Shown here: one piece after another, positions 3,328 through 54,690 of the stretch
How positions within the stretch are numbered: the stretch's first letter is position 1
How the letters are laid out: the number at the start of each line of letters is the position of its first letter
Made by a program: the position numbers and the translations under genes
Notes under the pieces: model-generated
Told to the model about the DNA's origin: nothing
Seen by the model: the letters and a program-made list of their open reading frames with translations, nothing else
The model's database searches: none
Assembly (NCBI GenBank): GCA_007694095.1
Contig: RECI01000168.1
Location: 1 to 63,448, forward strand
Direction of reading: 5' to 3'
DNA from: Balneolaceae bacterium
Lineage (GTDB): Bacteria > Bacteroidota > Rhodothermia > Balneolales > Balneolaceae
Length of the DNA: 63,448 bases

Positions 3328-5625
3328 TTATTGCTTATTGATGTTCCATACCAGGGCACTTCTGCCATGAAGACCGGCCTGTATGGCAACAGTACCATCA
3401 GCTGCACCGGCTTCAAAGCGGGTTTGATGTATGAGTTCATGAATGGAATAAATACTATCCTCACCGGTTTTCAAATAAATTTCAACCTCCTTTAACTGAT
3501 ATCCGTGATTAATGGCAAAAAGCAGCCAGCCATTATCGTGTTCCTGCAGGCGAATCGCCACAGGCGCTTCACTGTTTCCGTCATGAGAACTGGTCACTTT
3601 TCTTTCGATACCTGCCCATTCGGCAAGACCCAAAATAAAAGCCACATTTTCCTCAATTAATTCGGGATGATTGGCCATTCCTAGAAACGTACCGATCAGC
3701 ATGGCCTCACCTTCACCATAGGTATGGACTGTAATACCAGGGTCACCTGTTAACCCAAGATTTGCAAGAATGGTAACATTGCTCCCTTCCAAAGGTGTTG
3801 CAGACGCGCCGTAAAGAGTCCCGGTCAATCCTGGATTACCGGGGATTTTCCGGGTGGCCGGATGAGTATGATTCACTACGTTGAAGATTATTTCATCTTC
3901 ACGCATAAAGACCTCATTTTCCTGAACCCCGAATACATCACTGAGTCCCATTCCGGGTATTCTGTCGGATGCATATCCTCTCTCATCATTCCATGCCAAA
4001 CGCGCCTCCGCAGCTACATACCCCCCGGCTTCAACAAACCGTTTTACACCATCAGCAGCATCACGGGTGAACATGAGCGACCATGGCATAAGAATCAACT
4101 TATACTGAGAAAGATCACCATCTTCCAGATCGCGCCGGTGTATAAAGTCAACTGGTATGTTGTGTTCTGCAAATACCCTGTAGTAGCCCATCAGAGAGTC
4201 GTGATGTCCACCCGGGAATTCAAATCGTCTCTGTGCTCCCCCTACCATTTGGGCTAATGGGTTATAAACGATTGCAACCTGTGCTTTTTCCGGCTGTGAC
4301 TGCAAAAAAAGCTCCATATAATCATCCACTGTCCGGGCAATCTGTCCGGAATTTATGGCTCGTTCCGTCACAGTCCCATCCTGGTTAACCAGCCCATAGC
4401 CACCCGATTCATATCCGGATGACATGGGATAATATGCATATATATTGATAGCCTTCGCCCCTTTTGCGATGGCCGACCAGGCCCAGACGTTATGATCACC
4501 CGGAGTAACCGGATCGCTGATCAAAAGTGCAATCGTCCCAATTCCAGCCTGCAGCTCACCAACATACCAACCCCCCTTATCTTTATTGGCACTTCGAGCA
4601 AAATCCATCATATTCATAACACGCCAGGCCGGCCAGTGCCGGTCGGGGTGGTTATGCTTAGGATAGAGCGAAACCCCATAGAAATCCACAACATCAGCCA
4701 TCAGAAAATCATCCGTTGCACCTACACCAAGATGTGGGGATATTATGATAGACGAGACCGCCGCATGTGATGTAATCACATTATGATGATCGGCTTCTCT
4801 CACGGCATCGTATCTCGCACCTAAATCATCCTGAAGCTTCTCATAAATAAACGTTTTCCAGTCAAGATAATCCGTATAACTCAGGATTGTACTGAACCTT
4901 GGCGGGCTAACGTCTTCCCAGGTTTCGAAACCCCGGTGCCATGCTGTATTCAGGTTTTCGAGAGTATGATACTTATCCCTGAGCCATTCGCGAAATTTCG
5001 ACTGGGTGTAGGGGCAATAGCAGAATTGGGCATTTTGTACATAGTCAATATTAGCCCAGTTTATGATGTGTGGTTCGCTCCAAAGATCCCATCCGTAAAA
5101 GTTGGAATATTCGTTTGCAACTCTGGCAGTTTCCGTATAAAAATTGTGAACTGCCTCTGCTACACCATCATGATCTGTGCAAAAACCCGGTGCTGACTGA
5201 GACTCAATCATCACACCGCTTTGAGTTTGGAATTTCGCTGTCGGATATTGTTTACCAACCCAATCAGGCGCAGAATCCACATACATCTGGATAAAAACTC
5301 TCAGGCCAACCTCATCTGCAAGTTCCATCAATAAACGAAGATTTTCAAAGTTATACTCACCAGGTCTCGGTTCAGCACGCTGCCATTCAACCCATGTGCG
5401 AACGGTATTAAAACCAAGATTTTTTATTTGCTGAAGATCACTTCTCCACTCAGTCCTCGATTCTTCAGTTAATGCCGATAACATTGGTGCCCTTGCATCA
5501 CCCCCGCTATACCATACAGAAAAGGGGAAAAAATCGGGATCAAAAAGCTGGTCAGGTGTTTGCTGGGCCTGTAATTGAATAGGTAAATAAATGGCGATAA
5601 GAATAGAAAACAAATATAATTTCAT
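3328..5625 (-). CDS. Secreted GH42-type beta-galactosidase-like glycoside hydrolase
   Basis: The protein has 765 residues with a clear signal peptide (MKLYLFSILIAIYLPIQLQA, cut before QQTP). A TIM-barrel catalytic domain follows with family-42 hallmarks: FNTVRTWVEWQRAEPRPGEYNF near residue 75, the probable acid/base Glu in WDLWSEPHI near residue 185, and the probable nucleophile in GWYVGELQAG near residue 358. A Rossmann-like trimerisation domain (KAQVAIVYNP to GGYVAAEARLAW, about 450-560) and a small beta-rich C-terminus complete the GH42/A4 layout. Export points to extracellular or periplasmic attack on beta-galactosides or related glycans. Its partner is the oxidoreductase gene 9 bp downstream. 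Confidence 0.9.
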   Translation of the reverse strand: MKLYLFSILIAIYLPIQLQAQQTPDQLFDPDFFPFSVWYSGGDARAPMLSALTEESRTEWRSDLQQIKNLGFNTVRTWVEWQRAEPRPGEYNFENLRLLMELADEVGLRVFIQMYVDSAPDWVGKQYPTAKFQTQSGVMIESQSAPGFCTDHDGVAEAVHNFYTETARVANEYSNFYGWDLWSEPHIINWANIDYVQNAQFCYCPYTQSKFREWLRDKYHTLENLNTAWHRGFETWEDVSPPRFSTILSYTDYLDWKTFIYEKLQDDLGARYDAVREADHHNVITSHAAVSSIIISPHLGVGATDDFLMADVVDFYGVSLYPKHNHPDRHWPAWRVMNMMDFARSANKDKGGWYVGELQAGIGTIALLISDPVTPGDHNVWAWSAIAKGAKAINIYAYYPMSSGYESGGYGLVNQDGTVTERAINSGQIARTVDDYMELFLQSQPEKAQVAIVYNPLAQMVGGAQRRFEFPGGHHDSLMGYYRVFAEHNIPVDFIHRRDLEDGDLSQYKLILMPWSLMFTRDAADGVKRFVEAGGYVAAEARLAWNDERGYASDRIPGMGLSDVFGVQENEVFMREDEIIFNVVNHTHPATRKIPGNPGLTGTLYGASATPLEGSNVTILANLGLTGDPGITVHTYGEGEAMLIGTFLGMANHPELIEENVAFILGLAEWAGIERKVTSSHDGNSEAPVAIRLQEHDNGWLLFAINHGYQLKEVEIYLKTGEDSIYSIHELIHQTRFEAGAADGTVAIQAGLHGRSALVWNINKQ

Positions 5626-6160
5626 GGTAAAGATCCCTGGTTTTTGAATATTTGTTGGTTAGCCTGATTTTGCTCTAAATACCGGCAATTAATATTACTT
5701 ATTACAATTCTTTAAAATAAGTAAAAGAGAGATGCTGTGAAGAGTATTTCGAATTTTCTTTAATACAGATTTCAACAGCCTCAATTAATCAGTACCATAA
5801 TCCGGATACTTGCTTTTTTAGTTTGTTGATATTATCATGATTAGAGTAAATATTTTTTTAAATTATTACCGGTGCTTTTCAGCAATTCTTCAATTAATAT
5901 CATTTAAACCGTTCGTATATAGCTACATCGTTACAGTTTCACAGGCAGTTCAATTCACATAAAAATTATTCCAGTTTATATATTCTGTGAATGAATTACA
6001 GAATTATTTAATTAACTGGTATATCATTGTTAAATTGAATTTGCACGAAATCTGATATATTATTGTAAAATGTGAAACAATATTAGCGACTTGAATACAG
6101 TTAAATTCTGTATATTCCGGTTGTGAAATATCCCATTACACACTATTAGCATTTTCCATT
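5626..6160. other. AT-rich intergenic region between divergent genes
   Basis: This 535-bp spacer lies between the starts of the glycosidase and the PorV-like gene, so it should hold promoters in both directions. No open reading frame is convincing. A 7-bp inverted repeat (ATTCTGT at 5982-5988 and ACAGAAT at 5998-6004) and a looser one (GAATACAG / CTGTATATTC near 6093-6118) could be operators. I could not assign promoter boxes with confidence. Confidence 0.4.
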
Positions 6161-7285
6161 ATGAAAAAAGTTTTATTCGCAATATTTGCAACAATTTTAC
6201 TCCCCCTGAGTACGATGGCCCAGGTTGGAATAACGGCAGTACCGTTCCTTCAAATTGAACCCGATTCCAGAGCTACGGGAATGGGTAATACAGGTGTAGC
6301 CATTGCCGACAATGCATCTGCAATTTTCTGGAATCCAGCCGGATTGGCCTTTCAAAATCAAAGCCAGATAAGCCTTACACACGCCAACTGGCTGCCAGCT
6401 TTTAATGCTGATCTTTTCTACGATTATCTCGTAGGAACCTATCACGTTGACGGCATTGGAACAATTGGCGGCCATATAACTTTTCTGAATCTTGGCGAAC
6501 AGACCAGGACGGATGAAACCGGCCTCGAGCTTGGACGTTTCAATAGTTTTGAAATTTCTGCCGGGTTATCTTACGGTTTTCGATTGTCGGATAACTTTGC
6601 ACTTGGCACCGGAATTCGTTACATCTACAGCTCCCTGGCAGATGGAAGCGTGAGCGGACAGCAGATCAATCCCGGCTCAAGTATCGGAGTGGATCTTGCA
6701 GCATTATATAAAACCAACCCATTTACCGTTGCAAATCGAGAGGCAACATTTAACGCAGGCTTTAATCTTTCAAATATTGGCCCGGGTATTCAATACACAG
6801 ATAATGCTCAAAGAGACCCCCTGCCAACGATGTTCAGGGCCGGTTGGGCATACAAAATGGATCTTGACAGAAATGGCCTGAATACACTCACATTCTCTAA
6901 CGACATTTCAAAAATTATGGCCAGAAATGAGCGTGTTGGAACTGATCCAGACAGTCCTGAGTACGAAACAATGGGTGTTTTTGAAGCTTTGTTTAATTCA
7001 TGGGGTTCTTTCGAACGATTCAATGGCACTGAAACAGTAACCGTTTCTCTTGCACAGCAACTGATGTTTGGATTCGGACTTGAATATTGGTACGATAACC
7101 TGTTCGCACTCAGAACCGGTTACTATTTTGAACATCCGGAAAACGGAAACCGTGAATTTATTACTCTTGGAGCGGGACTGCGTTACAATATTTTTGGTGT
7201 TGATTTTAGCTACCTCTATACTTTGGAAGATGATCACCCGCTTGCAAATACTATAAGGCTAAGCCTATTGATTAATTTCAGATAA
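6161..7285 (+). CDS. PorV/PorQ-family type IX secretion outer-membrane protein
   Basis: The protein has 374 residues with a signal peptide ending at LPLSTMAQ. The diagnostic N-terminal block of the PorV/PorQ family follows: FLQIEPDSRATGMGNTGVAI, then ASAIFWNPAGLAF near residue 50. The rest alternates hydrophobic and polar residues as in a beta barrel and ends with an aromatic-rich strand (LSLLINFR). PorV in the type IX system shuttles cargo from the SprA translocon to the attachment complex; paralogues vary in role. It heads a run of genes whose next member carries a type IX sorting domain only 10 bp downstream, which supports a carrier/cargo pairing. Whether this is PorV itself or a paralogue is open. 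Confidence 0.85.
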   Translation: MKKVLFAIFATILLPLSTMAQVGITAVPFLQIEPDSRATGMGNTGVAIADNASAIFWNPAGLAFQNQSQISLTHANWLPAFNADLFYDYLVGTYHVDGIGTIGGHITFLNLGEQTRTDETGLELGRFNSFEISAGLSYGFRLSDNFALGTGIRYIYSSLADGSVSGQQINPGSSIGVDLAALYKTNPFTVANREATFNAGFNLSNIGPGIQYTDNAQRDPLPTMFRAGWAYKMDLDRNGLNTLTFSNDISKIMARNERVGTDPDSPEYETMGVFEALFNSWGSFERFNGTETVTVSLAQQLMFGFGLEYWYDNLFALRTGYYFEHPENGNREFITLGAGLRYNIFGVDFSYLYTLEDDHPLANTIRLSLLINFR

Positions 7286-7295
7286 GCTCTGATTA

Positions 7296-10200
7296 ATGAC
7301 ATACAGGTTTTCAGGAAGCAGTGGTATCTTTGTTGTATCACTGCTTTTTTTGTTTTTTGATGGCTTGGTTGCCGTTCAAGCACAAATACCGGTACTCAGG
7401 TCTGCAGAGCATCCTGTTAACCGGAATACACCCATTAACAGCTCTGTCAATCCTGTTGAAGGAACCCTTCAGATTCTTGCCATTATGGTAGAATTTCAGC
7501 CTGATGAAAACAGGTTTACATCAGGCAATGGCACCTTTGGACCGGGCAGTATCCCATACCTCGAAAATCCGGGCTCAAATATTGATCCATTGCCTCATAA
7601 CAGGGAATATTTTGAGGCACATCTTGAATTTGTAAAAAACTACTTTGAAAGAATGTCTCAAGGTAAACTGAACATAGAGTATCATGTTCTTCCAGACATT
7701 TTCAGGTTGCCTTTTCAGATGCAGGAGTATTCTCCAATTGGAGTAGATCCTGAACTTACACCTCTCGCATCGTTAGCTCAGGATTCATGGTCACTGGTGG
7801 CACAAAAAGGCTCATTGCCTGAAACGCTTAATCCTCAAACTGATACAGCGTTTATTATCTTCCATGCCGGTGTCGGGCGCGACATTCAACTAACAGGTAC
7901 AACACTTGATAAAACTCCACAGGATATCCCGTCTGTTTACTTAGGCAAGCAGGCTTTTCGCAATCTGTTATCGGATCCCTCATTCAGCGGATTTGAAATA
8001 GACAATGGGAACCTGCTGGTTGAGAATACCTTGATTTTACCCAGAACATTAACCCGATCAGGCGAAGATATAACCGGCAACCGTTTTGTTCTTCCATTAT
8101 CCATAAACGGCATGGCAACTGCTCAGATTGGAAGCCATCTAGGCCTGCCCGATCTGTTTAATACCAAAACCGGGGAATCCGGAATTGGACGTTTTGGCCT
8201 GATGGACGGCGCCGGAATTTTTGCATACAACGGACTCTTTCCGCCCGGGCTATCCGCCTGGGAACGAACCTTTCTTGGCTGGGCTGAACCTTTTGATGTA
8301 TCATTCGACAATGATCTGATACAATTACCGGCAATTTCGTTAAACGGTTCGAAACATATAGCAAAAGTTGAACTTTCTTCTGATGAATATTTTTTAATAG
8401 AAAATCGGCACAGAGACCCCTATGATGAAGGTCTTACTTTAACTATTCGCAGGACTGACGGCTCATTAACTCAGCAAAGGTTTACAAACAGGGATACCGA
8501 ATTTGTAAACCAGCGCAGCGGTTTCGACCGGCTGTTGGAACCCGGAGTGGTGGTTGATGTAAGTAATTATGATTTTGCCCTCCCCGGAGGCCTCGATGAT
8601 AGCGGCGAGAACGAGCGTTTGCTTAATGGCGGTATTTTAATTTGGCATATTGACGAATCGGTAATTCGTCAAAAACTTGGGCGTGAGGGAATCAACAACA
8701 ACCCGGAACGCCGGGCCGTAAATCTCCGCGAAGCCGATGGAGCCCAGGATATCGGACGCCCCGCTTCTGTAGGGCTGTTCCAGAATGAAACGAATGGGTC
8801 TCCTTTTGATTTTTGGTGGTCGGGAAATAATGCAACCGTTATTTCGCCATCAGGTGAAATTACACTCTATCAAAACAGGTTTGGCCCCAACACAATTCCT
8901 GATAACAGGAGCAATTCAGGTGCAGTGTCATTTTTTGAAATCTTTGATTTTTCAGACAATCTCCCAACTGCCAGTTTCAGAATTCATCAGGTAAATCCAT
9001 ATTCACACCTGTACCAGGTTATCCATTCCAGGAATGACCTCCGGGTGGCAACATTTACCGAATTCGCCGATCAATATTACAGGAGATATCCCCTCGCAAT
9101 ACAACCTTACCTGTCAAAAACGGAAAATTGGGTAGTGATCCCCGGTAATAATGGAATTCATATATACAATCCTGATTCTGATTTTCTTTCGGATGTTTTA
9201 CAAACAGGATATCATATTCAGCAACCTTTCATATCTTCACAAAACGGTTTTTTTACACTTGCAGAGAAACCAACTGCTGACAAACAAGAGATTTACGTGA
9301 CAGGATATAAATGGTCTGAAGATCTGGTACATGAGTTGTGGAAATTTACTGCCCCTGCCCCCAATGGTTTTGTGAGTTCATCAGAGCAAAATATTCTGGA
9401 CATTGATGGCACCAATGTTAGATTCGACATTCTTGAATTAAATAATCTCTTCTTGCTTAAGCCTTCATGGTTTTCGGGAATTAATAATGGCTATCAATCA
9501 AGGATTGAAGACAACAGCCTGGTTCTTCAATTTCCCGGCGGCGTACAGACATTTCCAATTATTGAGGATTTACAAAACATCAGAATTCATACCGGAATCA
9601 TAAAAAATGGTAACAATGATATCACTTTTTACCTGTTATTGGATAATAAACTCTCACTGTACACATCGGATACCGGATATACTGAAGAATTGATATTATC
9701 CGAAAATAGTTTAATCGATTGGCCGGCTATTGCAGATTTTAATAAAGACGGATCCCCGGATATTTTGTTTATTGACCTTGACGCCAACTCCCTAATTGCC
9801 AAAAATAAATATGGCGCAATGCTGCCCAACTTTCCATTACGTCCTCCAAAAGATGTCCGTTTTATTGGTACACCAATAATAGCCGATCTAAACGGTGATG
9901 GATTTTATGAACTTTTGATAACCGGACTGGATCAATTTTCAATGAATATCTACGCATATACCCAATCTGGCAAAATTGCTGATGGTTTTCCGCTATATGT
10001 CGGAAGTGTGTCTGATATGGAAAACCAGCCAGTACATCCCCTGATCACTAATGAATATTTGGTCGCTGTAAGTCATGAAGGAGATCTTAAGGTGTGGCTG
10101 TTCCCGAATATTTCCGAAACAGCATGGGCATCACGTTATGGCAATCAGACAAATAATAAGGTGAGTGCATTTATAAAAGCCATAACCCCTCAATTACCGG

Positions 10201-10487
10201 TATTTACACTTTTGAACAAAGAAGAAACCTATAATTGGCCAAATCCGGCAGGTGATGAAACATTTATAAGATTTGAGACTGATACCCCTGCCGATGTACG
10301 TATTCGCATCACAACAATGAGCGGAAGGCTTATTTATGATGTAACTACAAAAAGCCGTGGTGGACTTCCGGAAGAAATTCGTTTAGACACATCTGCGTGG
10401 GCCAGTGGTGGATATATCGCTTTGATTGAAGCAAAAGCGAATTCAAAAACGGAACAAAAAATTGTTAAAATAGCCATCGTTAAATAG
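7296..10487 (+). CDS. T9SS-sorted protein with M6-protease-like domain lacking the zinc motif
   Basis: This 1063-residue secreted protein has a signal peptide ending near VAVQAQ. Residues about 55-350 follow the immune-inhibitor-A-like (M6) metalloprotease layout: GTLQILAIMVEFQP, YFERMSQGKLNIEY, GLPDLF, GIGRFGLMDGAG and LSAWERTFLGW. The zinc-binding HEFGH that should precede GLPDLF is replaced: residues 276-286 read AQIGSHLGLPD, so both metal His and the catalytic Glu are lost. Further on are FG-GAP/VCBS-like repeats (ADFNKDGSPDILF near 810, ADLNGDGFYELL near 865). Residues about 975-1063 form a type A sorting domain ending in KIVKIAIVK. It is probably a surface binding protein rather than a peptidase. 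It follows the PorV-like gene and touches the next gene. Confidence 0.85.
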   Translation: MTYRFSGSSGIFVVSLLFLFFDGLVAVQAQIPVLRSAEHPVNRNTPINSSVNPVEGTLQILAIMVEFQPDENRFTSGNGTFGPGSIPYLENPGSNIDPLPHNREYFEAHLEFVKNYFERMSQGKLNIEYHVLPDIFRLPFQMQEYSPIGVDPELTPLASLAQDSWSLVAQKGSLPETLNPQTDTAFIIFHAGVGRDIQLTGTTLDKTPQDIPSVYLGKQAFRNLLSDPSFSGFEIDNGNLLVENTLILPRTLTRSGEDITGNRFVLPLSINGMATAQIGSHLGLPDLFNTKTGESGIGRFGLMDGAGIFAYNGLFPPGLSAWERTFLGWAEPFDVSFDNDLIQLPAISLNGSKHIAKVELSSDEYFLIENRHRDPYDEGLTLTIRRTDGSLTQQRFTNRDTEFVNQRSGFDRLLEPGVVVDVSNYDFALPGGLDDSGENERLLNGGILIWHIDESVIRQKLGREGINNNPERRAVNLREADGAQDIGRPASVGLFQNETNGSPFDFWWSGNNATVISPSGEITLYQNRFGPNTIPDNRSNSGAVSFFEIFDFSDNLPTASFRIHQVNPYSHLYQVIHSRNDLRVATFTEFADQYYRRYPLAIQPYLSKTENWVVIPGNNGIHIYNPDSDFLSDVLQTGYHIQQPFISSQNGFFTLAEKPTADKQEIYVTGYKWSEDLVHELWKFTAPAPNGFVSSSEQNILDIDGTNVRFDILELNNLFLLKPSWFSGINNGYQSRIEDNSLVLQFPGGVQTFPIIEDLQNIRIHTGIIKNGNNDITFYLLLDNKLSLYTSDTGYTEELILSENSLIDWPAIADFNKDGSPDILFIDLDANSLIAKNKYGAMLPNFPLRPPKDVRFIGTPIIADLNGDGFYELLITGLDQFSMNIYAYTQSGKIADGFPLYVGSVSDMENQPVHPLITNEYLVAVSHEGDLKVWLFPNISETAWASRYGNQTNNKVSAFIKAITPQLPVFTLLNKEETYNWPNPAGDETFIRFETDTPADVRIRITTMSGRLIYDVTTKSRGGLPEEIRLDTSAWASGGYIALIEAKANSKTEQKIVKIAIVK

Positions 10488-13400
10488 GTGAAATCAAAAA
10501 CAGCATATCATATATTTACAATATCTTTGATGCTGTCATTTCAGCTTTTTTTTAATCTGAATGGATGGGCTCAGGTTTCACCATTCTCTTTAGATTATCC
10601 ACAGAACCACTTGCCCTGGTTTACAATTGAAAGCGATCATTTTCTTGTACATTTCCAACAGGGCAACAGCCGGACAGCCCAGGTTGTTTCACAAATTGCT
10701 GATGATATTTACGAACCGGTAACCAAACTATACGGCCATAAACCCCGGAAAAAAGTGAGTATTATCCTGCGCGACAGGGAAGATTTCTCGAACGGAGCCG
10801 CTTTTTTTTATGACGATAAAATCGAAATCTGGTTACCGGCTCTCGATACACCTTTTCGGGGCACCCATCCATGGCTCAGGAATGTGATAACCCATGAATT
10901 CACCCATATTGTTCAGCTAGGCGCATCCATGAGCCGCACCCAGACTGTACCGGCCATTTATTTTCAATGGCTGAATTATGAAGATGTAAGGCGTCCGGAT
11001 GTACTCTACGGTTTCCCAAAAGGCATATTCACACTTCCATTTGCTTCCGTTAATATTCCGGCATGGTTCGCAGAAGGCACTGCCCAATACCAGGTAAAGG
11101 GGCATAGTTTTGATTTTTGGGACAGTCACCGTGATATGTTACTCAGAACCCGGATATTGTCGGACACACATCTCGATTTAATCCAAATGGGCACCTTTGA
11201 ATCTAAAAACAGTCTTGAACGGGAACTTGTCTATAACCAGGGATACGATTTTACGCGATACCTTACAAACCGCTTTGGTGAAAATATTATCGCTGAAATT
11301 TCTGCAGCTTCAGCGCAATCAGGCAGAAATAATTTTAATCATGCAATTCGGGTGGCTTCAGGGTTTAAGGCTCAGGAGCTCTTCGAAGACTGGGTTCAAT
11401 CCAGAAAGAAGATGTACTCAATGCTTAAAGATTCAATCGATATTACAGAATCTGAAATTATAGAAGAGCGCGGTTTTATGAATTTTTATCCGCAATTTAA
11501 TAACGACGGAACAGTTTTTGCGTATCTCACAAACCGTACCAGGGATATTGCAAGAACCTCTCTGGTGATTCAAAAAGATGGAACCGATATTGAAGTTGAT
11601 GAGCTTGGAGGGCCTTTTTTTATGAACACAACCCAGCAGTACAATTTCAGCCATGGTTTTGCGTCAAATCCATCCATAGAATTTGTAAATAACCGCTTTT
11701 CGTTTTCTCCTGATGGAAGATCCATTGCTTACAGCAGGGCCAATAAAAATAGATATGGAGAAACTTACCAGGATATTTATATCTATGACATATTGAGTGG
11801 AACCCGAAAAAAAATTACGGAAAGCAAAAGAGTTCAGGATCCAGCCTGGCACCCCGAAAAAAACATCCTCGCTGCCGTTCAGCTTTTGGATGGAACTCAA
11901 AACCTTGTTCTGATCAATCTTGATGACCTGTCAATAGATAAACTAACGGATTTCAATTCCGGTGAAACAGTATATACACCAATTTGGTCACCAGATCAGC
12001 AGAATATCTATTTCGCAATGGCAGCATCAGGCAATCGAAATATTGCGCGTTATGATATTGGGCTTAAGCAGGTTTTTTCTGTATTTGTGAATGATAACAT
12101 CGATTATCGTGATCCCTGGATAGACACAGAATCCGGATTTCTGTACTTCTCATCAGATGCCTCCGGTATTTTTAACATCTACAAAAAAGAATCAAACACT
12201 ACTGAGATTTATAAAGTGACGGAAGTAATCGGGGGGGCTTTCATGCCCTATATGATGAACGATCAACTCTACTTTTCGGAGTTTTTCCATGACGGTTACA
12301 AAATCAGTACTATACCGGTTCCTGAATTTCCAAAACGAATTACCGAAACCATTTCAGGAAAATATATTACGGCTACAAATACACCACACTATTCCTCTAA
12401 TCCGGATTACTACCATGTTAAGCCGCTTTCATTTGATCCGGAAAACCGAAATGGCAGTGGAATTGTATATGAAATTACTGGTTCTGATGATAACCAGACT
12501 AAAATTTGGTACCCATATAGAGAAACATCTACCGGTTTAAGTATTTTTCCTGTTCTGCGTTTCGACAATTACACAAAATTGGAAGGAAGTAATTCCAGGT
12601 TACTTAGAAATGCCCAATTCGGCAATTTCGGAAATAATTTGTGGCGCGATTTTAAAGCCGGGGCATATTTTTCCACCCGTGATGTAACAGAACGTTTTTC
12701 CCTATTTGGAGGCGCTTTGATTGGATTTGGTTCAGTCCCGTTTGATGGCCTTACAGATTTTTTTTCACCCACAAGGCTCAATAAGCTCGATCGAGACCTA
12801 TTTCTGATTGCAGAATACCGGGGATTTCCTTTTATAAGGCGAAGTTGGTCTCCGACAATAAGTATAGAACTTTATAATATTAGCCGTAATGTAAAAAATG
12901 GCATCGTAATCGAAGAATTTCCATGCACTTCTTGCCTGCCCGTGGATAAAAGTATCGACATAAGATATGAATTGTGGGAAGCTAATTTATTTCTTCGCAG
13001 CAAGCTGAATCGTTGGAGTCTGATTGAGTTAAGTGCGGCATATTCACCATACAGTGTAAATACCCAGGGATTTTTCTCACAGGAATTCAGAGAATTCATT
13101 CCCGGCACTACATCACGGTATTTCAGAGGATCAAGTTACACAGCTTCATATGTTGTAGATGCAACCATACCTGCAATAGATGCTGATATTGCTCCAACCG
13201 GATTGAAGGGAAGTTTTAGTTACCGGTTTGAACCGGGCCGTTTATTGAAAGAGTTTGAGTTGAATGATGGCATTTTATCGCCGGTATTTTCAAAGGACTT
13301 AAATCAATCAATTGAATTTAGATCCCGGTATGGACTTTCGATTACTGATAAAACCAATGCAATGATAACCATGCGGGTTTTCAGTTATTTAAACAATCCC

Positions 13401-13841
13401 GAAGATTACTTTTACCAGGATTACACAGGGGGTTTGATTGGCCTTCGCTCCTACCCTTATTTTTCAATCGGTGGTCAGCGTACTTTCTTTACCCGTGCCT
13501 CTTTGCTTCATCCACTCTTCAGCCAGTTGAATTATCAAATACGACATTACACACTTGATAAGATTTATGCACATATTTATTACGAAACTGGCAACGGTTG
13601 GGGCGGCCCGTTAAACATAGGAAATAACTTAAAAAATGGGATTGGTGCAGAATTAAGGTTTTCATTTAATAGTTCGTATCTTTTTCCAATGAAATTTTTT
13701 ATGAATGCATCATATGGTATCGATCAATTTAACGTTACATTTCCTCAACAATTTATAAGTACATCCGGAATGGATTCCATAACCTATGGGAGGGAATTTC
13801 TATTTTACTTTGGCTTAACGTTCGACTTTGATTTGTTATGA
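10488..13841 (+). CDS. HEXXH metallopeptidase with TolB-like propeller and outer-membrane barrel
   Basis: The protein has 1117 residues and starts at GTG directly after the upstream stop codon. A signal peptide ends near LNGWAQ. The N-terminal domain is a gluzincin-type peptidase: HEFTH at residues 136-140 supplies the zinc His and catalytic Glu, and WFAEGTAQY supplies the third ligand (Glu196). Residues about 310-640 contain repeated propeller strands (FSPDGRSIAYSRA, DPAWHPEKNILAAV, TPIWSPDQQNIYFA) like TolB/WD40. The last 400 residues look like a surface-antigen/BamA-type beta barrel ending FYFGLTFDFDLL. It probably sits in the outer membrane with the peptidase part facing one side. Unlike its upstream neighbour, its catalytic motif is intact. 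Confidence 0.85.
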   Translation: MKSKTAYHIFTISLMLSFQLFFNLNGWAQVSPFSLDYPQNHLPWFTIESDHFLVHFQQGNSRTAQVVSQIADDIYEPVTKLYGHKPRKKVSIILRDREDFSNGAAFFYDDKIEIWLPALDTPFRGTHPWLRNVITHEFTHIVQLGASMSRTQTVPAIYFQWLNYEDVRRPDVLYGFPKGIFTLPFASVNIPAWFAEGTAQYQVKGHSFDFWDSHRDMLLRTRILSDTHLDLIQMGTFESKNSLERELVYNQGYDFTRYLTNRFGENIIAEISAASAQSGRNNFNHAIRVASGFKAQELFEDWVQSRKKMYSMLKDSIDITESEIIEERGFMNFYPQFNNDGTVFAYLTNRTRDIARTSLVIQKDGTDIEVDELGGPFFMNTTQQYNFSHGFASNPSIEFVNNRFSFSPDGRSIAYSRANKNRYGETYQDIYIYDILSGTRKKITESKRVQDPAWHPEKNILAAVQLLDGTQNLVLINLDDLSIDKLTDFNSGETVYTPIWSPDQQNIYFAMAASGNRNIARYDIGLKQVFSVFVNDNIDYRDPWIDTESGFLYFSSDASGIFNIYKKESNTTEIYKVTEVIGGAFMPYMMNDQLYFSEFFHDGYKISTIPVPEFPKRITETISGKYITATNTPHYSSNPDYYHVKPLSFDPENRNGSGIVYEITGSDDNQTKIWYPYRETSTGLSIFPVLRFDNYTKLEGSNSRLLRNAQFGNFGNNLWRDFKAGAYFSTRDVTERFSLFGGALIGFGSVPFDGLTDFFSPTRLNKLDRDLFLIAEYRGFPFIRRSWSPTISIELYNISRNVKNGIVIEEFPCTSCLPVDKSIDIRYELWEANLFLRSKLNRWSLIELSAAYSPYSVNTQGFFSQEFREFIPGTTSRYFRGSSYTASYVVDATIPAIDADIAPTGLKGSFSYRFEPGRLLKEFELNDGILSPVFSKDLNQSIEFRSRYGLSITDKTNAMITMRVFSYLNNPEDYFYQDYTGGLIGLRSYPYFSIGGQRTFFTRASLLHPLFSQLNYQIRHYTLDKIYAHIYYETGNGWGGPLNIGNNLKNGIGAELRFSFNSSYLFPMKFFMNASYGIDQFNVTFPQQFISTSGMDSITYGREFLFYFGLTFDFDLL

Positions 13842-14821
13842 AGTTTAAAATAATACTGTTCATTTTTACTTTATGTCCCATTCTGGTATTTTCACAAGAC
13901 AATGCCGGTACAAACATTTTTAGTTTAACTTTTCAAGAGAAAGAACTGTCGATTGACCGCGATTTTCACTTTGTTACACCTGTATTGCTCAGGAATAACC
14001 AATATCAGTCAGAAATTTATTATAATGATCAAGAAACTACGTTTAGATCTCCCGGTGTCACATTTTTCGGCTCTTTGGTAGTACCTGGTACCGGCCAAAT
14101 CATGAACGAAAGTTGGTGGAGAGCCGGTTTCTTTCTAGCATTGGAAGTAACATCTATCTATCTGGCTGTGGAATATAGAAACCGGGGCAGAATCGGAGAA
14201 AGAGAATACGAAAGATTTGCTAACAATAATTGGAGTGTTGTTCAATATTCGCAGTGGCTTGTAGATTACCATGCATTTCATGGCATAGAGAATCCGTACA
14301 TTAATGAGCTTATTGAGATGGTGGCTGGAATATCACCAAGCTTCAGAACCAATGTTGAATGGAATCAGATTGATTTAAACATTTTGCGCCGGGTAGAGGC
14401 AAATACACCCTATGTAACAACAGATCAGCTGGGCGCTTCCATTTTTTCACATACATTGCCTGGTTATGGCAGTCAGCAATTCTATGAACTGATTTCTAAA
14501 TATTACCAGTTCCAGGCAGGATGGAGAGATTATGATGAGTTTCATGATAATATTGGAAATACAGGGCGTTTTTTTAATGACCGTTTTCTAATTGACAGAA
14601 ACGGCGCTCACGCCAGCCAGAATTTTTTTACTGGGGTCCGCATGGCAAATCAGTTCAACCAGGATTATCGTTGGAGCAATCACTTTATCTCCGTATTAAT
14701 TGCCAATCATTTTTTCTCTGCACTTGATGCATTTTTTACATCAACACGGAAACTTAACAGGCTTTCTGCCAGTTCAACCATCATACCGGGACAACAGGTG
14801 GTAATCAATTATCGGTTTTGA
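13838..14821 (+). CDS. DUF5683-like secreted or membrane protein
   Basis: The 327-residue protein has a signal peptide (to LVFSQ). The central segment GSLVVPGTGQIMNESWWRAGFFLALEVTS has the PGxGQ...W..G...E pattern of DUF5683-like proteins, which are widespread in Bacteroidota and of unknown function. Two more hydrophobic stretches follow, including HFISVLIANHFFSALDAFF near the C-terminus, and it ends in a short beta-like QVVINYRF. It overlaps the metallopeptidase stop by ATGA, which implies translational coupling and a shared role at the envelope. A second protein of this style is at 55649-56299. The family call rests on pattern resemblance, not a search. Confidence 0.6.
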   Translation: MKFKIILFIFTLCPILVFSQDNAGTNIFSLTFQEKELSIDRDFHFVTPVLLRNNQYQSEIYYNDQETTFRSPGVTFFGSLVVPGTGQIMNESWWRAGFFLALEVTSIYLAVEYRNRGRIGEREYERFANNNWSVVQYSQWLVDYHAFHGIENPYINELIEMVAGISPSFRTNVEWNQIDLNILRRVEANTPYVTTDQLGASIFSHTLPGYGSQQFYELISKYYQFQAGWRDYDEFHDNIGNTGRFFNDRFLIDRNGAHASQNFFTGVRMANQFNQDYRWSNHFISVLIANHFFSALDAFFTSTRKLNRLSASSTIIPGQQVVINYRF

Positions 14822-14826
14822 AGCAC

Positions 14827-15675
14827 ATGGAAAATCTTAAACATTTTTTGACAAGCAGAAAGCTATATTCGATCATAACCGGCTTTATAGTTGCCGGATT
14901 GGCATTTTTGATCATTATGGATTTGATAATTATGCCTTATTATACCAATTACAATAAAGGTGTTACAGTACCTGATGTTACCAAACTTTCACTTAATGAA
15001 GCTGAAGCCCTTCTTGAACAATACGGCCTTCGCCATGAAGTGTTGGACAGGCGATCACATTCAGCTTATCCTGCAAATTATATCATTGACCAGGCTCCGG
15101 CTCCCCGCCAAATTGTTAAACCCAACCGCAAGATATATCTCACAGTAAATACTGATACCACACCAAAAACGGTTGTGCCCAATGTTGTGGCGATGTCATT
15201 GAGGAATGCAGAAATTCAGCTGGTGAATCACGGGCTTGTTGTGGGTTCTATCAGTTATGAATCTTCACGTTTCCGTAATACTGTACTCAGGCAATCCGTG
15301 GCCCCCGGAGATACCATTCCCAGGGGCACCGTTGTAAACCTGGCAATCAGTGATGGGCTTGGAACCCGGATCATATCCGTACCGGATGTGAAAGGAATGC
15401 GACTTTCAGAGGGGCAACAAGCTATTTTAAGGGCAGGTTTGCGTGTGGGTGAAATACGTTTTCAACCAAGTCGTGAACATACTCCGAATACCATCATCTC
15501 ATATACTCCGGATGTTGAGGAACTTACCGAAGGTGAAGAACTTCTGTTAATTGTTGCAGAAAGGTTTGACGCGCGTGAAGAATTGGAAGAAGGTGCAATT
15601 ATTGATGATTCCAACAATATTCCCGATAATCAGGAATCAATTGATATTCAAAATGACGAAGAATATGAATTTTGA
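14827..15675 (+). CDS. Membrane-anchored protein with three PASTA domains
   Basis: A single transmembrane helix (IITGFIVAGLAFLIIMDLIIM) near the N-terminus is followed by three PASTA repeats: VTVPDVTKLSLNEAEALLEQ, VVPNVVAMSLRNAEIQLVNH and ISVPDVKGMRLSEGQQAILR. The C-terminal tail is acidic and probably disordered. PASTA domains bind peptidoglycan or muropeptides in kinases and penicillin-binding proteins. This protein has no kinase or transpeptidase domain, so it may be a cell-wall sensor or tether. I chose ATG 14827; a TTG at 14818 overlapping the upstream stop is an alternative. It overlaps rpe at its 3' end. Placement before rpe and phoH is seen here; I infer operon membership. Confidence 0.85.
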   Translation: MENLKHFLTSRKLYSIITGFIVAGLAFLIIMDLIIMPYYTNYNKGVTVPDVTKLSLNEAEALLEQYGLRHEVLDRRSHSAYPANYIIDQAPAPRQIVKPNRKIYLTVNTDTTPKTVVPNVVAMSLRNAEIQLVNHGLVVGSISYESSRFRNTVLRQSVAPGDTIPRGTVVNLAISDGLGTRIISVPDVKGMRLSEGQQAILRAGLRVGEIRFQPSREHTPNTIISYTPDVEELTEGEELLLIVAERFDAREELEEGAIIDDSNNIPDNQESIDIQNDEEYEF

Positions 15676-52395: not shown

Positions 52396-54690
52396 TTATT
52401 TCAAAACAGTAAACTTGCGTGAAATATTTATGCCTGTTGACGTTAACGTGTAAATATAAACACCACTCGAAAGAGTGGATGCATCAAACGTTACCTTGTG
52501 AGATCCCGCCATAAATTTACCGTCAGCTACTACTGCAACCCGCCGGCCAAGTATGTCGAAAACTGACAGATTAACTTCAGCCTGCTCAGGCAGATCAAAA
52601 GTAATATGTGTGATTGGGTTGAACGGATTCGGGAAATTTTGGTAAAGTGCTGCTTTATCCGGCAAGTTATAATGCTGCTCATCAGCTAATCCCGGGTAAA
52701 TATGAAGAATATATTGTGAATTTAAATCGCTGCTGACAGGTTTATTAAACTCAGATCTCAAAATCAAATCATTATTTTTCTTTCTCTGGATATTGCTCTT
52801 GAAATTGAATTTAAAAGATGAAAATAAATCCAGGTGATGTAAGTATCCGGTAAATGTATCTTCGATTATAATTTTCCAGTCATACGGTATATTTTTAAAT
52901 CTCTTTATTGATAAAGTAGCTGCACCACTCACTCCGGATGATTGAAATACAACAGGTATTGATAATTTTTCACCTGGGTCAAAAGGCCGGGAATCCTGAG
53001 CCTTTAAAACGATCTCCCCATTTAATTCTCCAATAAATGCAATATTTACATACCTATTGGAGAGCGGCACTATTTTATGAGCATCTCTCATATCCCAATC
53101 ATGGTGGGCATCGGCATGAAAATAAAGCTGAAACGCCTCATCAATGAATAGTTCATCTGATCTTGAATCTATAGCCTCGAGCTGGAAACTAACCAGGCGA
53201 AAAGGTATGTTATCTTTGAAAAATTCAGCATCATAATTTCCGGAAGTATGATGAGGAAAGGTCATTTCTAAAGCATCATGATTATGGATAAAGAAACCCT
53301 GAAATGCAGCAATATTCTCCCCGGCATTAATAACTTTATAATTTCCGGTACTTTGCCACACCTGGGCGGTGTTGCTCATCAGATTTCCACCGGAAACCCA
53401 CGCATTCAACCCCTCATCTGTATCCAGTTTAATATCCGTACCAAAGGGATTACCTATCAAATTCCAGGTACCGTTCATTTGCCCCTCAATATTATCGGCA
53501 TGGTATGATGATAATGAGACTGAAACATCAGACTGCATCGCTTTGCCATTCGAAACAAGGCTGAATGGAAGTGGTTTACCGGGTAAGTAAGTATCGTTAT
53601 CATAGAGATACCAGATAAAACCGGTGCCAGGCTCCAGGATATCGTCTGTATTTCCGGGTTTAATCCATGAATTCCCGGATGCTTCGGGATCAAATGTATA
53701 GATATTTGCAATACCTGCTTCAATTGCCGCTCCGGTTATCCCCTGAACATGATTCTGGCGATTCAGGTTTTCAATATTGAATTTATCTGAAGGTGCAGCA
53801 AGCATTCTCCACCCTTCCCCACCGCTGATATCACGTAATACAGGTAAGTGATTCGCGTAGATGATATCGTCGACTTCCATTGATGCAATTTCTCCATTAA
53901 CACTGCCTCCAAGTAAACGGATCACAGATATTTTTTCACCAACAGCCAATGGGCTTCCCTGGTGATTGCCATTTGCAGATCCAGGTCCTGCAGCAACAAA
54001 ATTTCTATCAATCCAATAAGCTTGCTGTTGACTACCTATTGAATATGAAATCCCATTTCTATAATAAAAGTAATCATCAGGGGAATTATTGATATAAATT
54101 TCAATGATATGTTTTTTATTCAGCTCAACCAGGTTCAAATTAAAGTCGTGCGCTGAGTTGATTCCTGACCCTGTACCACTTTTCCTTTGTTTATCTATAT
54201 ATAACTCCCCTGTTTCCTGATCCTCTTGAACAGAAAATCTGATACCTGCTGCAAGACTCCCTAAACTTAAAGCATTGCCTGCAGAGTTTTCATCTCCAAT
54301 AAAAATCTCAAGATTGTTTTTACCTTCAGCAATGATTTTGATAGATGCCCTCAGGTAAAAAAACTCAGTGGCATCAAAACCTTGAATCTCAAAAATATTT
54401 CTTGCAGCCGTGGAACCGGCATCAAGTATCATTCTTGAATAGGTTCCAATCATATTATCAATATCTGAAATAATAATATCTCTGCCATCATTATTTACTC
54501 CGGTTCGAACTCTAAAAATTCCCCCGTTTGATTGGTTCTGTAAGATAAAATTTGTGTCGTCACCGGAAGTTTTTTCCCCAATAAAGTCTCCAAAGTCAAA
54601 TGACCACAGTTGTTCCTGGCCAGAAGCTTGTGTGGATGTGATGATAGAAATGGCTGCCAGCAAGACAAACAGATTTACACGTAGTCTCAT
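52396..54690 (-). CDS. Large secreted protein with type IX sorting domain
   Basis: The protein has about 764 residues, with a signal peptide (LFVLLAAISIITSTQASG) after ATG 54690. I see no catalytic motif. A beta-rich N-terminal region (LWSFDFGDFIGEKTSGDD; FEIQGFDATEFFYLRASI) suggests a carbohydrate- or glycan-binding-like fold. Repeated YHxD / LIGNPFGTDIKLDTDEG segments in the middle recall domains found in T9SS cargo. The last 90 residues are the type A sorting domain (ALYQNFPNPFNPITHITFDLPEQAEVNLSVFDILGRRV ... GVYIYTLTSTGINISRKFTVLK). The protein is presumably exported through the outer membrane and anchored to the surface or released. A GAGAGA-rich leader precedes the start. Confidence 0.88.
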   Translation of the reverse strand: MRLRVNLFVLLAAISIITSTQASGQEQLWSFDFGDFIGEKTSGDDTNFILQNQSNGGIFRVRTGVNNDGRDIIISDIDNMIGTYSRMILDAGSTAARNIFEIQGFDATEFFYLRASIKIIAEGKNNLEIFIGDENSAGNALSLGSLAAGIRFSVQEDQETGELYIDKQRKSGTGSGINSAHDFNLNLVELNKKHIIEIYINNSPDDYFYYRNGISYSIGSQQQAYWIDRNFVAAGPGSANGNHQGSPLAVGEKISVIRLLGGSVNGEIASMEVDDIIYANHLPVLRDISGGEGWRMLAAPSDKFNIENLNRQNHVQGITGAAIEAGIANIYTFDPEASGNSWIKPGNTDDILEPGTGFIWYLYDNDTYLPGKPLPFSLVSNGKAMQSDVSVSLSSYHADNIEGQMNGTWNLIGNPFGTDIKLDTDEGLNAWVSGGNLMSNTAQVWQSTGNYKVINAGENIAAFQGFFIHNHDALEMTFPHHTSGNYDAEFFKDNIPFRLVSFQLEAIDSRSDELFIDEAFQLYFHADAHHDWDMRDAHKIVPLSNRYVNIAFIGELNGEIVLKAQDSRPFDPGEKLSIPVVFQSSGVSGAATLSIKRFKNIPYDWKIIIEDTFTGYLHHLDLFSSFKFNFKSNIQRKKNNDLILRSEFNKPVSSDLNSQYILHIYPGLADEQHYNLPDKAALYQNFPNPFNPITHITFDLPEQAEVNLSVFDILGRRVAVVADGKFMAGSHKVTFDASTLSSGVYIYTLTSTGINISRKFTVLK

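What the first reader, a model, noticed from the sequence alone, without database searches (positions are those of the whole stretch)
7296..10487. Surface cargo with an M6-protease fold that has lost its zinc site
The flanking segments of the M6 active site (GLPDLF, GIGRFGLMDGAG, LSAWERTFLGW) are preserved but HEFGH reads AQIGS, losing both His ligands and the Glu. The protein retains a signal peptide, FG-GAP-like repeats and a type IX sorting domain, so it is probably a deliberate pseudoprotease, perhaps a binding or inhibitory module. It lies between a PorV-like carrier and a catalytically intact metallopeptidase/barrel protein, which suggests a new three-part surface machine.
Basis: partly seen in the sequence, partly recalled or inferred. 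Interest (0 to 1): 0.58.

Follow-up and report, generated by a model that had tools for sequence, protein, structure and literature searches.

The report
Dead M6 protease with obligate partner
This is a surface protein of a Balneolaceae bacterium shaped like an M6 protease but stripped of its zinc site, and in every genome examined it occurs together with a second, apparently live outer-membrane protease, so the two probably work as one unit beside the type IX secretion system.

Summary
ORF 7296-10487 is an M6-fold protein (model pLDDT 85.5; InhA2 match Z 21.1) whose HEXXH reads AQIGS. The label is not new: NCBIfam already has it as NF052323, 'T9SS-dependent M6-like inactivated metalloprotease' (1347.9 bits, cut-off 600). 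The loss is ancestral and fixed: 0 of 81 aligned homologues keep HEXXH, while the presumed third-ligand Asp is kept in 81 of 81. PorV lies beside it in 80 of 81 loci.

What I found beyond the label: the downstream gene, MA2 (gluzincin peptidase, TolB-like propeller, BamA-like barrel), keeps HEXXH and the downstream Glu in 70 of 70. MA2 and the dead protease occur in exactly the same 151 of 394 phylum genomes, no exceptions, also where not adjacent. The usual order is PorU-PorV-M6i-MA2. In the window's lineage PorU, PorZ and PorQ are all gone (17 of 17 genomes), yet the pair stays in 13 of those 17; where it is lost, both go.

Best reading: the dead protease is the non-catalytic, PorV-delivered surface subunit of a two-protein T9SS accessory module whose catalytic subunit is MA2, independent of the PorU sortase. 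Partnership is well supported; the biochemical role is inferred. No paper on it was found in the library searched.

The parts
6161..7285 (+). PorV, outer-membrane shuttle for type A sorting domains
   Evidence: NF033710 296.8 bits vs cut-off 250; PF19572 121.5 vs 27; beside M6i in 80 of 81 loci
7296..10487 (+). M6i: inactivated M6-like protein with signal peptide, M6 fold, beta-propeller and type A T9SS sorting domain
   Evidence: NF052323 1347.9 bits vs cut-off 600; model pLDDT 85.5, pTM 0.83
7458..8993 (+). M6-fold domain, residues 55-566
   Evidence: VIA-align 2: InhA2 4yu5_B Z 21.1, rmsd 3.5, 374 aligned, 18% identity; Foldseek best hit 4yu6_B, E 3.4e-11
8121..8135 (+). Dead zinc site AQIGS (residues 276-280) in place of HEXXH
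   Evidence: 81-row alignment: 276 A/S/G, 277 S/N/Q/T/M/I, 280 S/N/G; 0 of 81 HEXXH
8151..8153 (+). Asp286, retained presumed third ligand of HEXXHXXGXXD
   Evidence: 81 of 81 Asp
8997..10106 (+). Beta-propeller, residues 568-937
   Evidence: VIA-align 2 Z about 20-22 to BamB, Rsa4, YxaL propellers
10236..10469 (+). Type A T9SS sorting domain, residues 981-1058
   Evidence: TIGR04183 31.6 vs 23 bits
10488..13841 (+). MA2: partner protein; signal peptide, gluzincin peptidase, TolB-like propeller, BamA-like barrel
   Evidence: Same 151 of 394 genomes as M6i; model pLDDT 77.9; folds
10893..10907 (+). MA2 HEFTH (residues 136-140)
   Evidence: HEXXH in 70 of 70 MA2 rows
11073..11075 (+). MA2 Glu196, presumed third zinc ligand of a gluzincin
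   Evidence: Glu in 70 of 70
13838..14821 (+). DUF5683 protein, usual next gene of the operon but not obligatory
   Evidence: PF18935 29 vs 26.7 bits; stays beside PorV without M6i/MA2 in L211 and L213

Best explanation
M6i is an ancient pseudoprotease, exported through the T9SS and delivered by PorV, that serves as the non-catalytic surface subunit of a two-protein module whose catalytic subunit is MA2, an outer-membrane metallopeptidase built on a BamA-like barrel. Shown: M6 fold without a zinc site; fixed loss; intact catalytic residues in MA2; strict co-occurrence of the two genes; placement next to PorV; retention when PorU, PorZ and PorQ are lost. Inferred: that the two proteins touch each other, that the M6i sorting domain stays bound to PorV as those of PorU and PorZ stay on their barrels, that the former active-site cleft now binds a peptide or protein, and that the pair presents T9SS-delivered surface proteins to MA2 for cleavage or maturation. 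PorU is not needed for it.
For: Fold. Loss fixed: 0 of 81 HEXXH and 0 of 55 full-length named homologues; the segment 251-300 holding the dead site is the best conserved of the protein (mean 0.67), and positions 276 and 280 hold only A/S/G and S/N/G. Partnership: M6i and full-length MA2 in exactly the same 151 of 394 genomes, 0 discordant; in the 11 of 81 loci where MA2 is not beside M6i it is elsewhere in the genome; in L211 and L213 both genes are missing from between PorV and DUF5683. On a PorV tree the M6i label needs 9 changes; 6 independent pairs on well-supported branches, all 6 in step with MA2 (sign test p 0.031), while PorU does not follow. MA2 catalytic residues 70 of 70. PorU independence: no Peptidase_C25 in 17 of 17 genomes of the window's genus and two near groups, PorZ over cut-off in 0 of 17, PorQ in 0 of 17, SprA in 36 of 36, M6i kept in 13 of those 17. 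Unprocessed sorting domains of PorU and PorZ: review PMC10202324 (passages).
Against: No physical interaction was tested; co-occurrence shows functional linkage, not contact. The mirror-tree partial correlation supports M6i-MA2 (0.39) but as much M6i-PorU (0.42), and not M6i-PorV (-0.08). The N-terminal peptidase of an Omp85-type protein would by analogy with POTRA domains lie in the periplasm, on the other side of the membrane from M6i. The model of MA2 is only moderate (pLDDT 77.9). Many T9SS-bearing genomes work without the pair, so it is an accessory.
Confidence: 0.6

Rival explanations
1. M6i is an ordinary T9SS surface cargo (for example a carbohydrate or protein binder) that sits beside PorV by operon history; MA2 is simply its neighbour.
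For: It has a type A sorting domain like other cargo (26 such matches in G000), and gene adjacency alone can be inherited.
Against: MA2 co-occurs without exception also when not adjacent; joint changes several times over on the tree; one copy conserved over many families while sorting-domain matches shrink to 5-32 per genome in the lineages without PorU.
Confidence: 0.2
2. M6i is a regulator or inhibitor of MA2, holding it off until a substrate or signal arrives.
For: Dead/live protease pair, strict co-occurrence, conserved dead cleft.
Against: The two are of different protease families (M6 and peptidase MA), so inhibition by fold mimicry is not expected; nothing here shows a direction of effect.
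Confidence: 0.25
3. M6i still binds a metal or catalyses by other residues (Asp286, His190, Asp304, all invariant), so it is not truly inactive.
For: Asp286, His190 and Asp304 in 81 of 81.
Against: Both His ligands and the general-base Glu are gone in all 81; I recall motifs like FHAG and LMDG from active M6 proteins too (no call), so these residues need not be a new site.
Confidence: 0.07
4. MA2 is a stand-in for the PorU sortase, cutting sorting domains off cargo, with M6i as its receptor.
For: In the window's lineage PorU, PorZ and PorQ are gone but M6i and MA2 remain in 13 of 17 genomes, with 5-32 sorting-domain matches left.
Against: PorU and MA2 coexist in 60 of 81 M6i loci, and 4 of the 17 PorU-less genomes lack the pair too (G147, G223, G246, G282).
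Confidence: 0.15

Closest known systems
NCBIfam NF052323 T9SSA_dep_M6i (T9SS-dependent M6-like inactivated metalloprotease)
   Same: Same protein family; 1347.9 bits vs cut-off 600 over residues 12-1063
   Different: Nothing in the protein; the family name as shown says nothing of MA2, of PorV linkage or of retention without the sortase
Peptidase family M6 (immune inhibitor A type; solved InhA2, 4yu5/4yu6)
   Same: Catalytic-domain fold, Asp of the extended motif, LMD turn
   Different: No HEXXH in any of 81 aligned proteins; propeller and T9SS sorting domain added
T9SS attachment complex PorU-PorV-PorQ-PorZ
   Same: Encoded with PorV and usually PorU; carries its own sorting domain as PorU and PorZ do
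   Different: Not a sortase and not the PorZ family; stays in 13 of 17 genomes where PorU, PorZ and PorQ are lost
MA2 partner: peptidase MA / TolB-like propeller / Omp85-type barrel
   Same: Gluzincin signature, TolB propeller Z about 25, BamA barrels Z about 20-22
   Different: No NCBIfam equivalog over its cut-off; PF13485 27.8 is below its cut-off 32.4; peptidase and propeller stand before the barrel in the model

Membership tests
NF052323 T9SSA_dep_M6i | Score over the curated cut-off (600 bits) over the whole protein | tested here: met
   1347.9 bits, residues 12-1063
Active peptidase family M6 | HEXXH zinc-binding and catalytic motif | tested here: not met
   AQIGS in the window; 0 of 81 and 0 of 55 keep it
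Active peptidase family M6 | M6 catalytic-domain fold | tested here: met
   4yu5_B Z 21.1, rmsd 3.5, 374 aligned; best Foldseek hit 4yu6_B
Active peptidase family M6 | TIGR03296 M6 domain over cut-off (110.8 bits) | tested here: not met
   56.9 bits over residues 282-380
T9SS type A substrate | C-terminal sorting domain TIGR04183/PF18962 over cut-off | tested here: met
   31.6 vs 23 and 33.1 vs 27 bits
T9SS type A substrate | N-terminal signal peptide | tested here: inconclusive
   Hydrophobic N-terminus ending in AQA read by eye; no predictor was run
T9SS attachment complex component | Physical association with PorV and uncleaved sorting domain | not testable with these tools
   Only genetic linkage: PorV beside it in 80 of 81 loci
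MA2 as a gluzincin metallopeptidase | HEXXH plus downstream Glu | tested here: met
   H136, E137, H140 and E196 in 70 of 70
MA2 as Omp85-superfamily barrel protein | BamA-like C-terminal barrel | tested here: met
   Model residues about 683-1117 against BamA chains, Z about 20-22; Foldseek 8xnb_A E 3.2e-5
MA2 as Omp85-superfamily barrel protein | N-terminal POTRA domain | tested here: inconclusive
   Model shows peptidase and propeller before the barrel; no separate search for POTRA was run

The most novel reading that the evidence does not exclude
[quoted passage not shown] In lineages that have shed PorU, PorZ and PorQ this module is what remains at the exit of the secretion system and takes over processing.
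Probability: 0.2. Interest if true: 0.82.

Novelty: new variant of a known kind. Interest (0 to 1): 0.6.

Why it matters
The dead protease itself has a family label, but I found no proposed function for it in the library searched. A 151-of-151 co-occurrence with one specific, apparently live outer-membrane protease, across many bacterial families and regardless of gene distance, gives that orphan family a concrete partner and a testable role. It also exposes natural T9SS lineages that kept translocon and carrier but lost the sortase/attachment branch, which are natural experiments for what that branch does.

Tried and rejected
Direct PDB sequence searches found no M6 relative: phmmer 0 hits at E up to 1, profile search only chance propeller matches at E 0.75 and 0.99; the M6 link rests on TIGR03296's partial match, motif context and structure. 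GldM (TIGR03517) was uninformative: over cut-off only in the outgroup genome G103, so absence elsewhere says nothing about the motor. I considered that M6i replaces PorU; rejected, since the two coexist in most loci and the tree shows no linkage. I considered that the co-occurrence only mirrors T9SS presence; rejected, since many genomes with SprA, PorV and PorU lack both. I looked for PorU remnants in the window: only weak matches (best E 0.006), none upstream of PorV. I looked for an M6 protein beside PorV in the 20 loci (19 of genomes without M6i; L227 is the PorU region of G137, which has M6i elsewhere): only sorting-domain matches. Mirror-tree was weak and mixed. Paper searches that returned nothing on this family or pair: (library of open-licence PMC papers only; listings read, not the papers).

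Limits of the counts. The 81 loci are the window plus 80 that I chose for spread, 81 of the 151 genomes with M6i. The 55 named proteins (of 79 loci; short or broken ones were dropped) partly come from the same genomes as the 81. Homologues were recruited by NF052323 or by conserved M6i peptides that do not include the zinc motif, but a distant active relative below these cut-offs would not be seen. The M6i set of 151 uses E <= 1e-100 (145 pass the curated cut-off); weakest member 3.8e-107, best non-member 2.4e-13. MA2 presence was scored with a profile built only from the window and loci (A3), at E <= 1e-60; in a 38-genome run with a loose cut-off the gap was clean (genomes without M6i at best 1.8e-34 over a partial stretch, those with M6i at worst 3.2e-137). 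The Fisher p ignores relatedness; the independent-pairs test is the fair one. In one search the MA2 label was copied from the M6i label on the strength, PorU was set to present for L102 and L104, and L103 was dropped from the PorU label (G125 not tested). PorU itself (NF033707) was searched in 9 of the 17 PorU-less genomes; for all 17 the test is the absence of Peptidase_C25. PorU-lack of G061 (L046) was seen in its locus only.

Full report
The finding. ORF 7296-10487 (+) codes for 1063 residues. Residues 276-280 read AQIGS where an M6 peptidase has HEXXH, followed by intact M6-like context (HLGLPDLF, GIGRFGLMDGAG, LSAWERTFLGW). NCBIfam scores it at 1347.9 bits against NF052323 'T9SS-dependent M6-like inactivated metalloprotease' (cut-off 600), so the family and its inactivated state are already named there. 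The sorting domain passes the TIGR04183 and PF18962 cut-offs. The extended motif HEXXHXXGXXD is described for Asp-zincins in the abstract of PMC3890501 (search listing); that M6 belongs here, with Asp as third ligand, is from my own knowledge.

Fold. The model built on 46 aligned sequences has mean pLDDT 85.5 and pTM 0.83. Its best Foldseek match is immune inhibitor A2 (4yu6_B, E 3.4e-11). VIA-align 2 gives 4yu5_B Z 21.1, rmsd 3.5, 374 residues, model range 55-566. Residues 568-937 are a beta-propeller (BamB, Rsa4 and YxaL types at Z about 20-22), and the end is the sorting domain.

Is the loss consistent? A search of 394 genomes of the phylum found NF052323 over its cut-off in 145; 151 have a match at E <= 1e-100, the weakest 3.8e-107, the best non-member 2.4e-13. 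I fetched 80 neighbourhoods spread over the families. Aligned with the window, 0 of 81 keep HEXXH: position 276 is A/S/G (71/7/3), 277 is S/N/Q/T/M/I, 280 is S/N/G (61/19/1). Asp286, Asp304, His190 and Asn271 are invariant in 81 of 81. The segment 251-300 that holds the dead site is the best conserved of the protein. Of 79 named loci from a separate collection, 55 gave full-length proteins and none keeps HEXXH at this place; some of these are the same genomes. So the site was lost long ago in the ancestor of the sampled family (inference), and what replaced it is under constraint: a pseudoprotease, not a decaying gene.

Neighbourhood. In 101 loci (window, 80 with M6i, 20 PorV or PorU regions) the commonest order is PorU-PorV-M6i-MA2-DUF5683 (56). 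PorV-M6i-MA2-DUF5683, the window's type, is seen in 10. PorV is beside M6i in 80 of 81 M6i loci. MA2 lies in the locus in 70 of 81. Among the named loci MA2 is found with M6i in 73 of 79, several of the rest being short contigs.

The partner. MA2 (10488-13841) has HEXXH in 70 of 70 and Glu196 in 70 of 70. Its model (pLDDT 77.9, pTM 0.73) shows an N-terminal helical peptidase domain, a TolB-like propeller (residues about 318-615, Z about 25) and a BamA-like barrel (about 683-1117, Z about 20-22). A profile of MA2 searched in the same 394 genomes finds it in 151, exactly the 151 that have M6i, with none discordant. In the 11 of 81 loci where MA2 is not beside M6i it is elsewhere in the same genome. 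In two genomes of the near genus g7 (L211, L213) PorV and DUF5683 stand near each other with both genes missing between them. On a tree of 99 PorV proteins the M6i label changes 9 times; 6 independent pairs on well-supported branches all agree with MA2 (p 0.031), whereas PorU does not follow.

Independence from the sortase. The window's genome has no PorU over cut-off and no Peptidase_C25 at all; nor have the other 16 sampled genomes of its genus (8 with the window's) and of two near groups (g12: 1, g7: 8), 17 of 17. PorZ is below cut-off in all 17 and PorQ absent in all 17, while SprA (36 of 36) and PorV (36 of 36) stay. Sorting-domain matches number 5-32 per genome there (median 11) against 13-118 (median 77) in the 15 genomes with PorZ. 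In spite of this M6i and MA2 stay in 13 of the 17. Conversely, genomes such as G003, G030, G073, G227, G235, G336 and G356 have PorU and PorV but neither M6i nor MA2. The pair is thus an accessory of the T9SS that depends on neither PorU nor the attachment complex.

How it may work. A review (PMC10202324, passages) states that PorU and PorZ are themselves sorting-domain proteins whose domains are not removed and stay bound to PorV and PorQ, and that PorV is thought to carry cargo from the SprA translocon. A further paper states that type A sorting domains are all recognised by the PorV shuttle (PMC12618676, passages). By analogy M6i, a sorting-domain protein encoded next to PorV, may remain on PorV at the surface (inferred). 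Its dead cleft is kept, so it probably binds something (inferred). Its constant companion is an active-looking metallopeptidase anchored by a barrel, so the simplest joint role is recognition by M6i and cleavage by MA2 (inferred). Which side of the membrane the MA2 peptidase faces is unknown; by analogy with Omp85 proteins it could be periplasmic, which is the main difficulty. A mirror-tree analysis on 56 complete loci gave partial correlations of 0.39 for M6i-MA2, 0.42 for M6i-PorU and -0.08 for M6i-PorV, so it backs the pair but does not single it out.

Verdict. Observation confirmed, interpretation partly right: a conserved pseudoprotease, already labelled as such by NCBIfam, but with an obligate, apparently live partner and a sortase-independent place beside the T9SS that I could not find described in the library searched.

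Noticed in passing
Genome of the window (G000) and 16 relatives; window 5626-6160 upstream of PorV: PorU, PorZ and PorQ are all missing in 17 of 17 genomes of three groups that keep SprA and PorV and 5-32 sorting-domain matches: a T9SS without its sortase/attachment branch.
   Followed up: partly
L211, L213 (G147, G246): Apparent clean joint loss of M6i and MA2 between PorV and DUF5683.
   Followed up: partly
L220-L223 (G143, G191, G305, G384; family f11): A second lineage with SprA and PorV but no PorU or PorZ over cut-off and no M6i; two of the four keep PorQ and three have another C25 protein.
   Followed up: no
window 14818-15675: PASTA-repeat membrane protein without a kinase domain, next in the operon before rpe-like and phoH-like genes (names of the last two recalled from the translations).
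   Followed up: no
window 52435-52638 (- strand): Weak PorU-tail match (E 0.006-0.9), probably another sorting-domain protein in the window.
   Followed up: no
L109 (G377) and G237: M6i reading frame ends early (553 aa) in one genome and has one stop inside in another, possibly broken or mis-assembled copies.
   Followed up: no
window 3328-5625 (- strand): Beta-galactosidase-type GH42 protein (PF02449 159.5 bits) upstream of PorV, where PorU stands in relatives.
   Followed up: no
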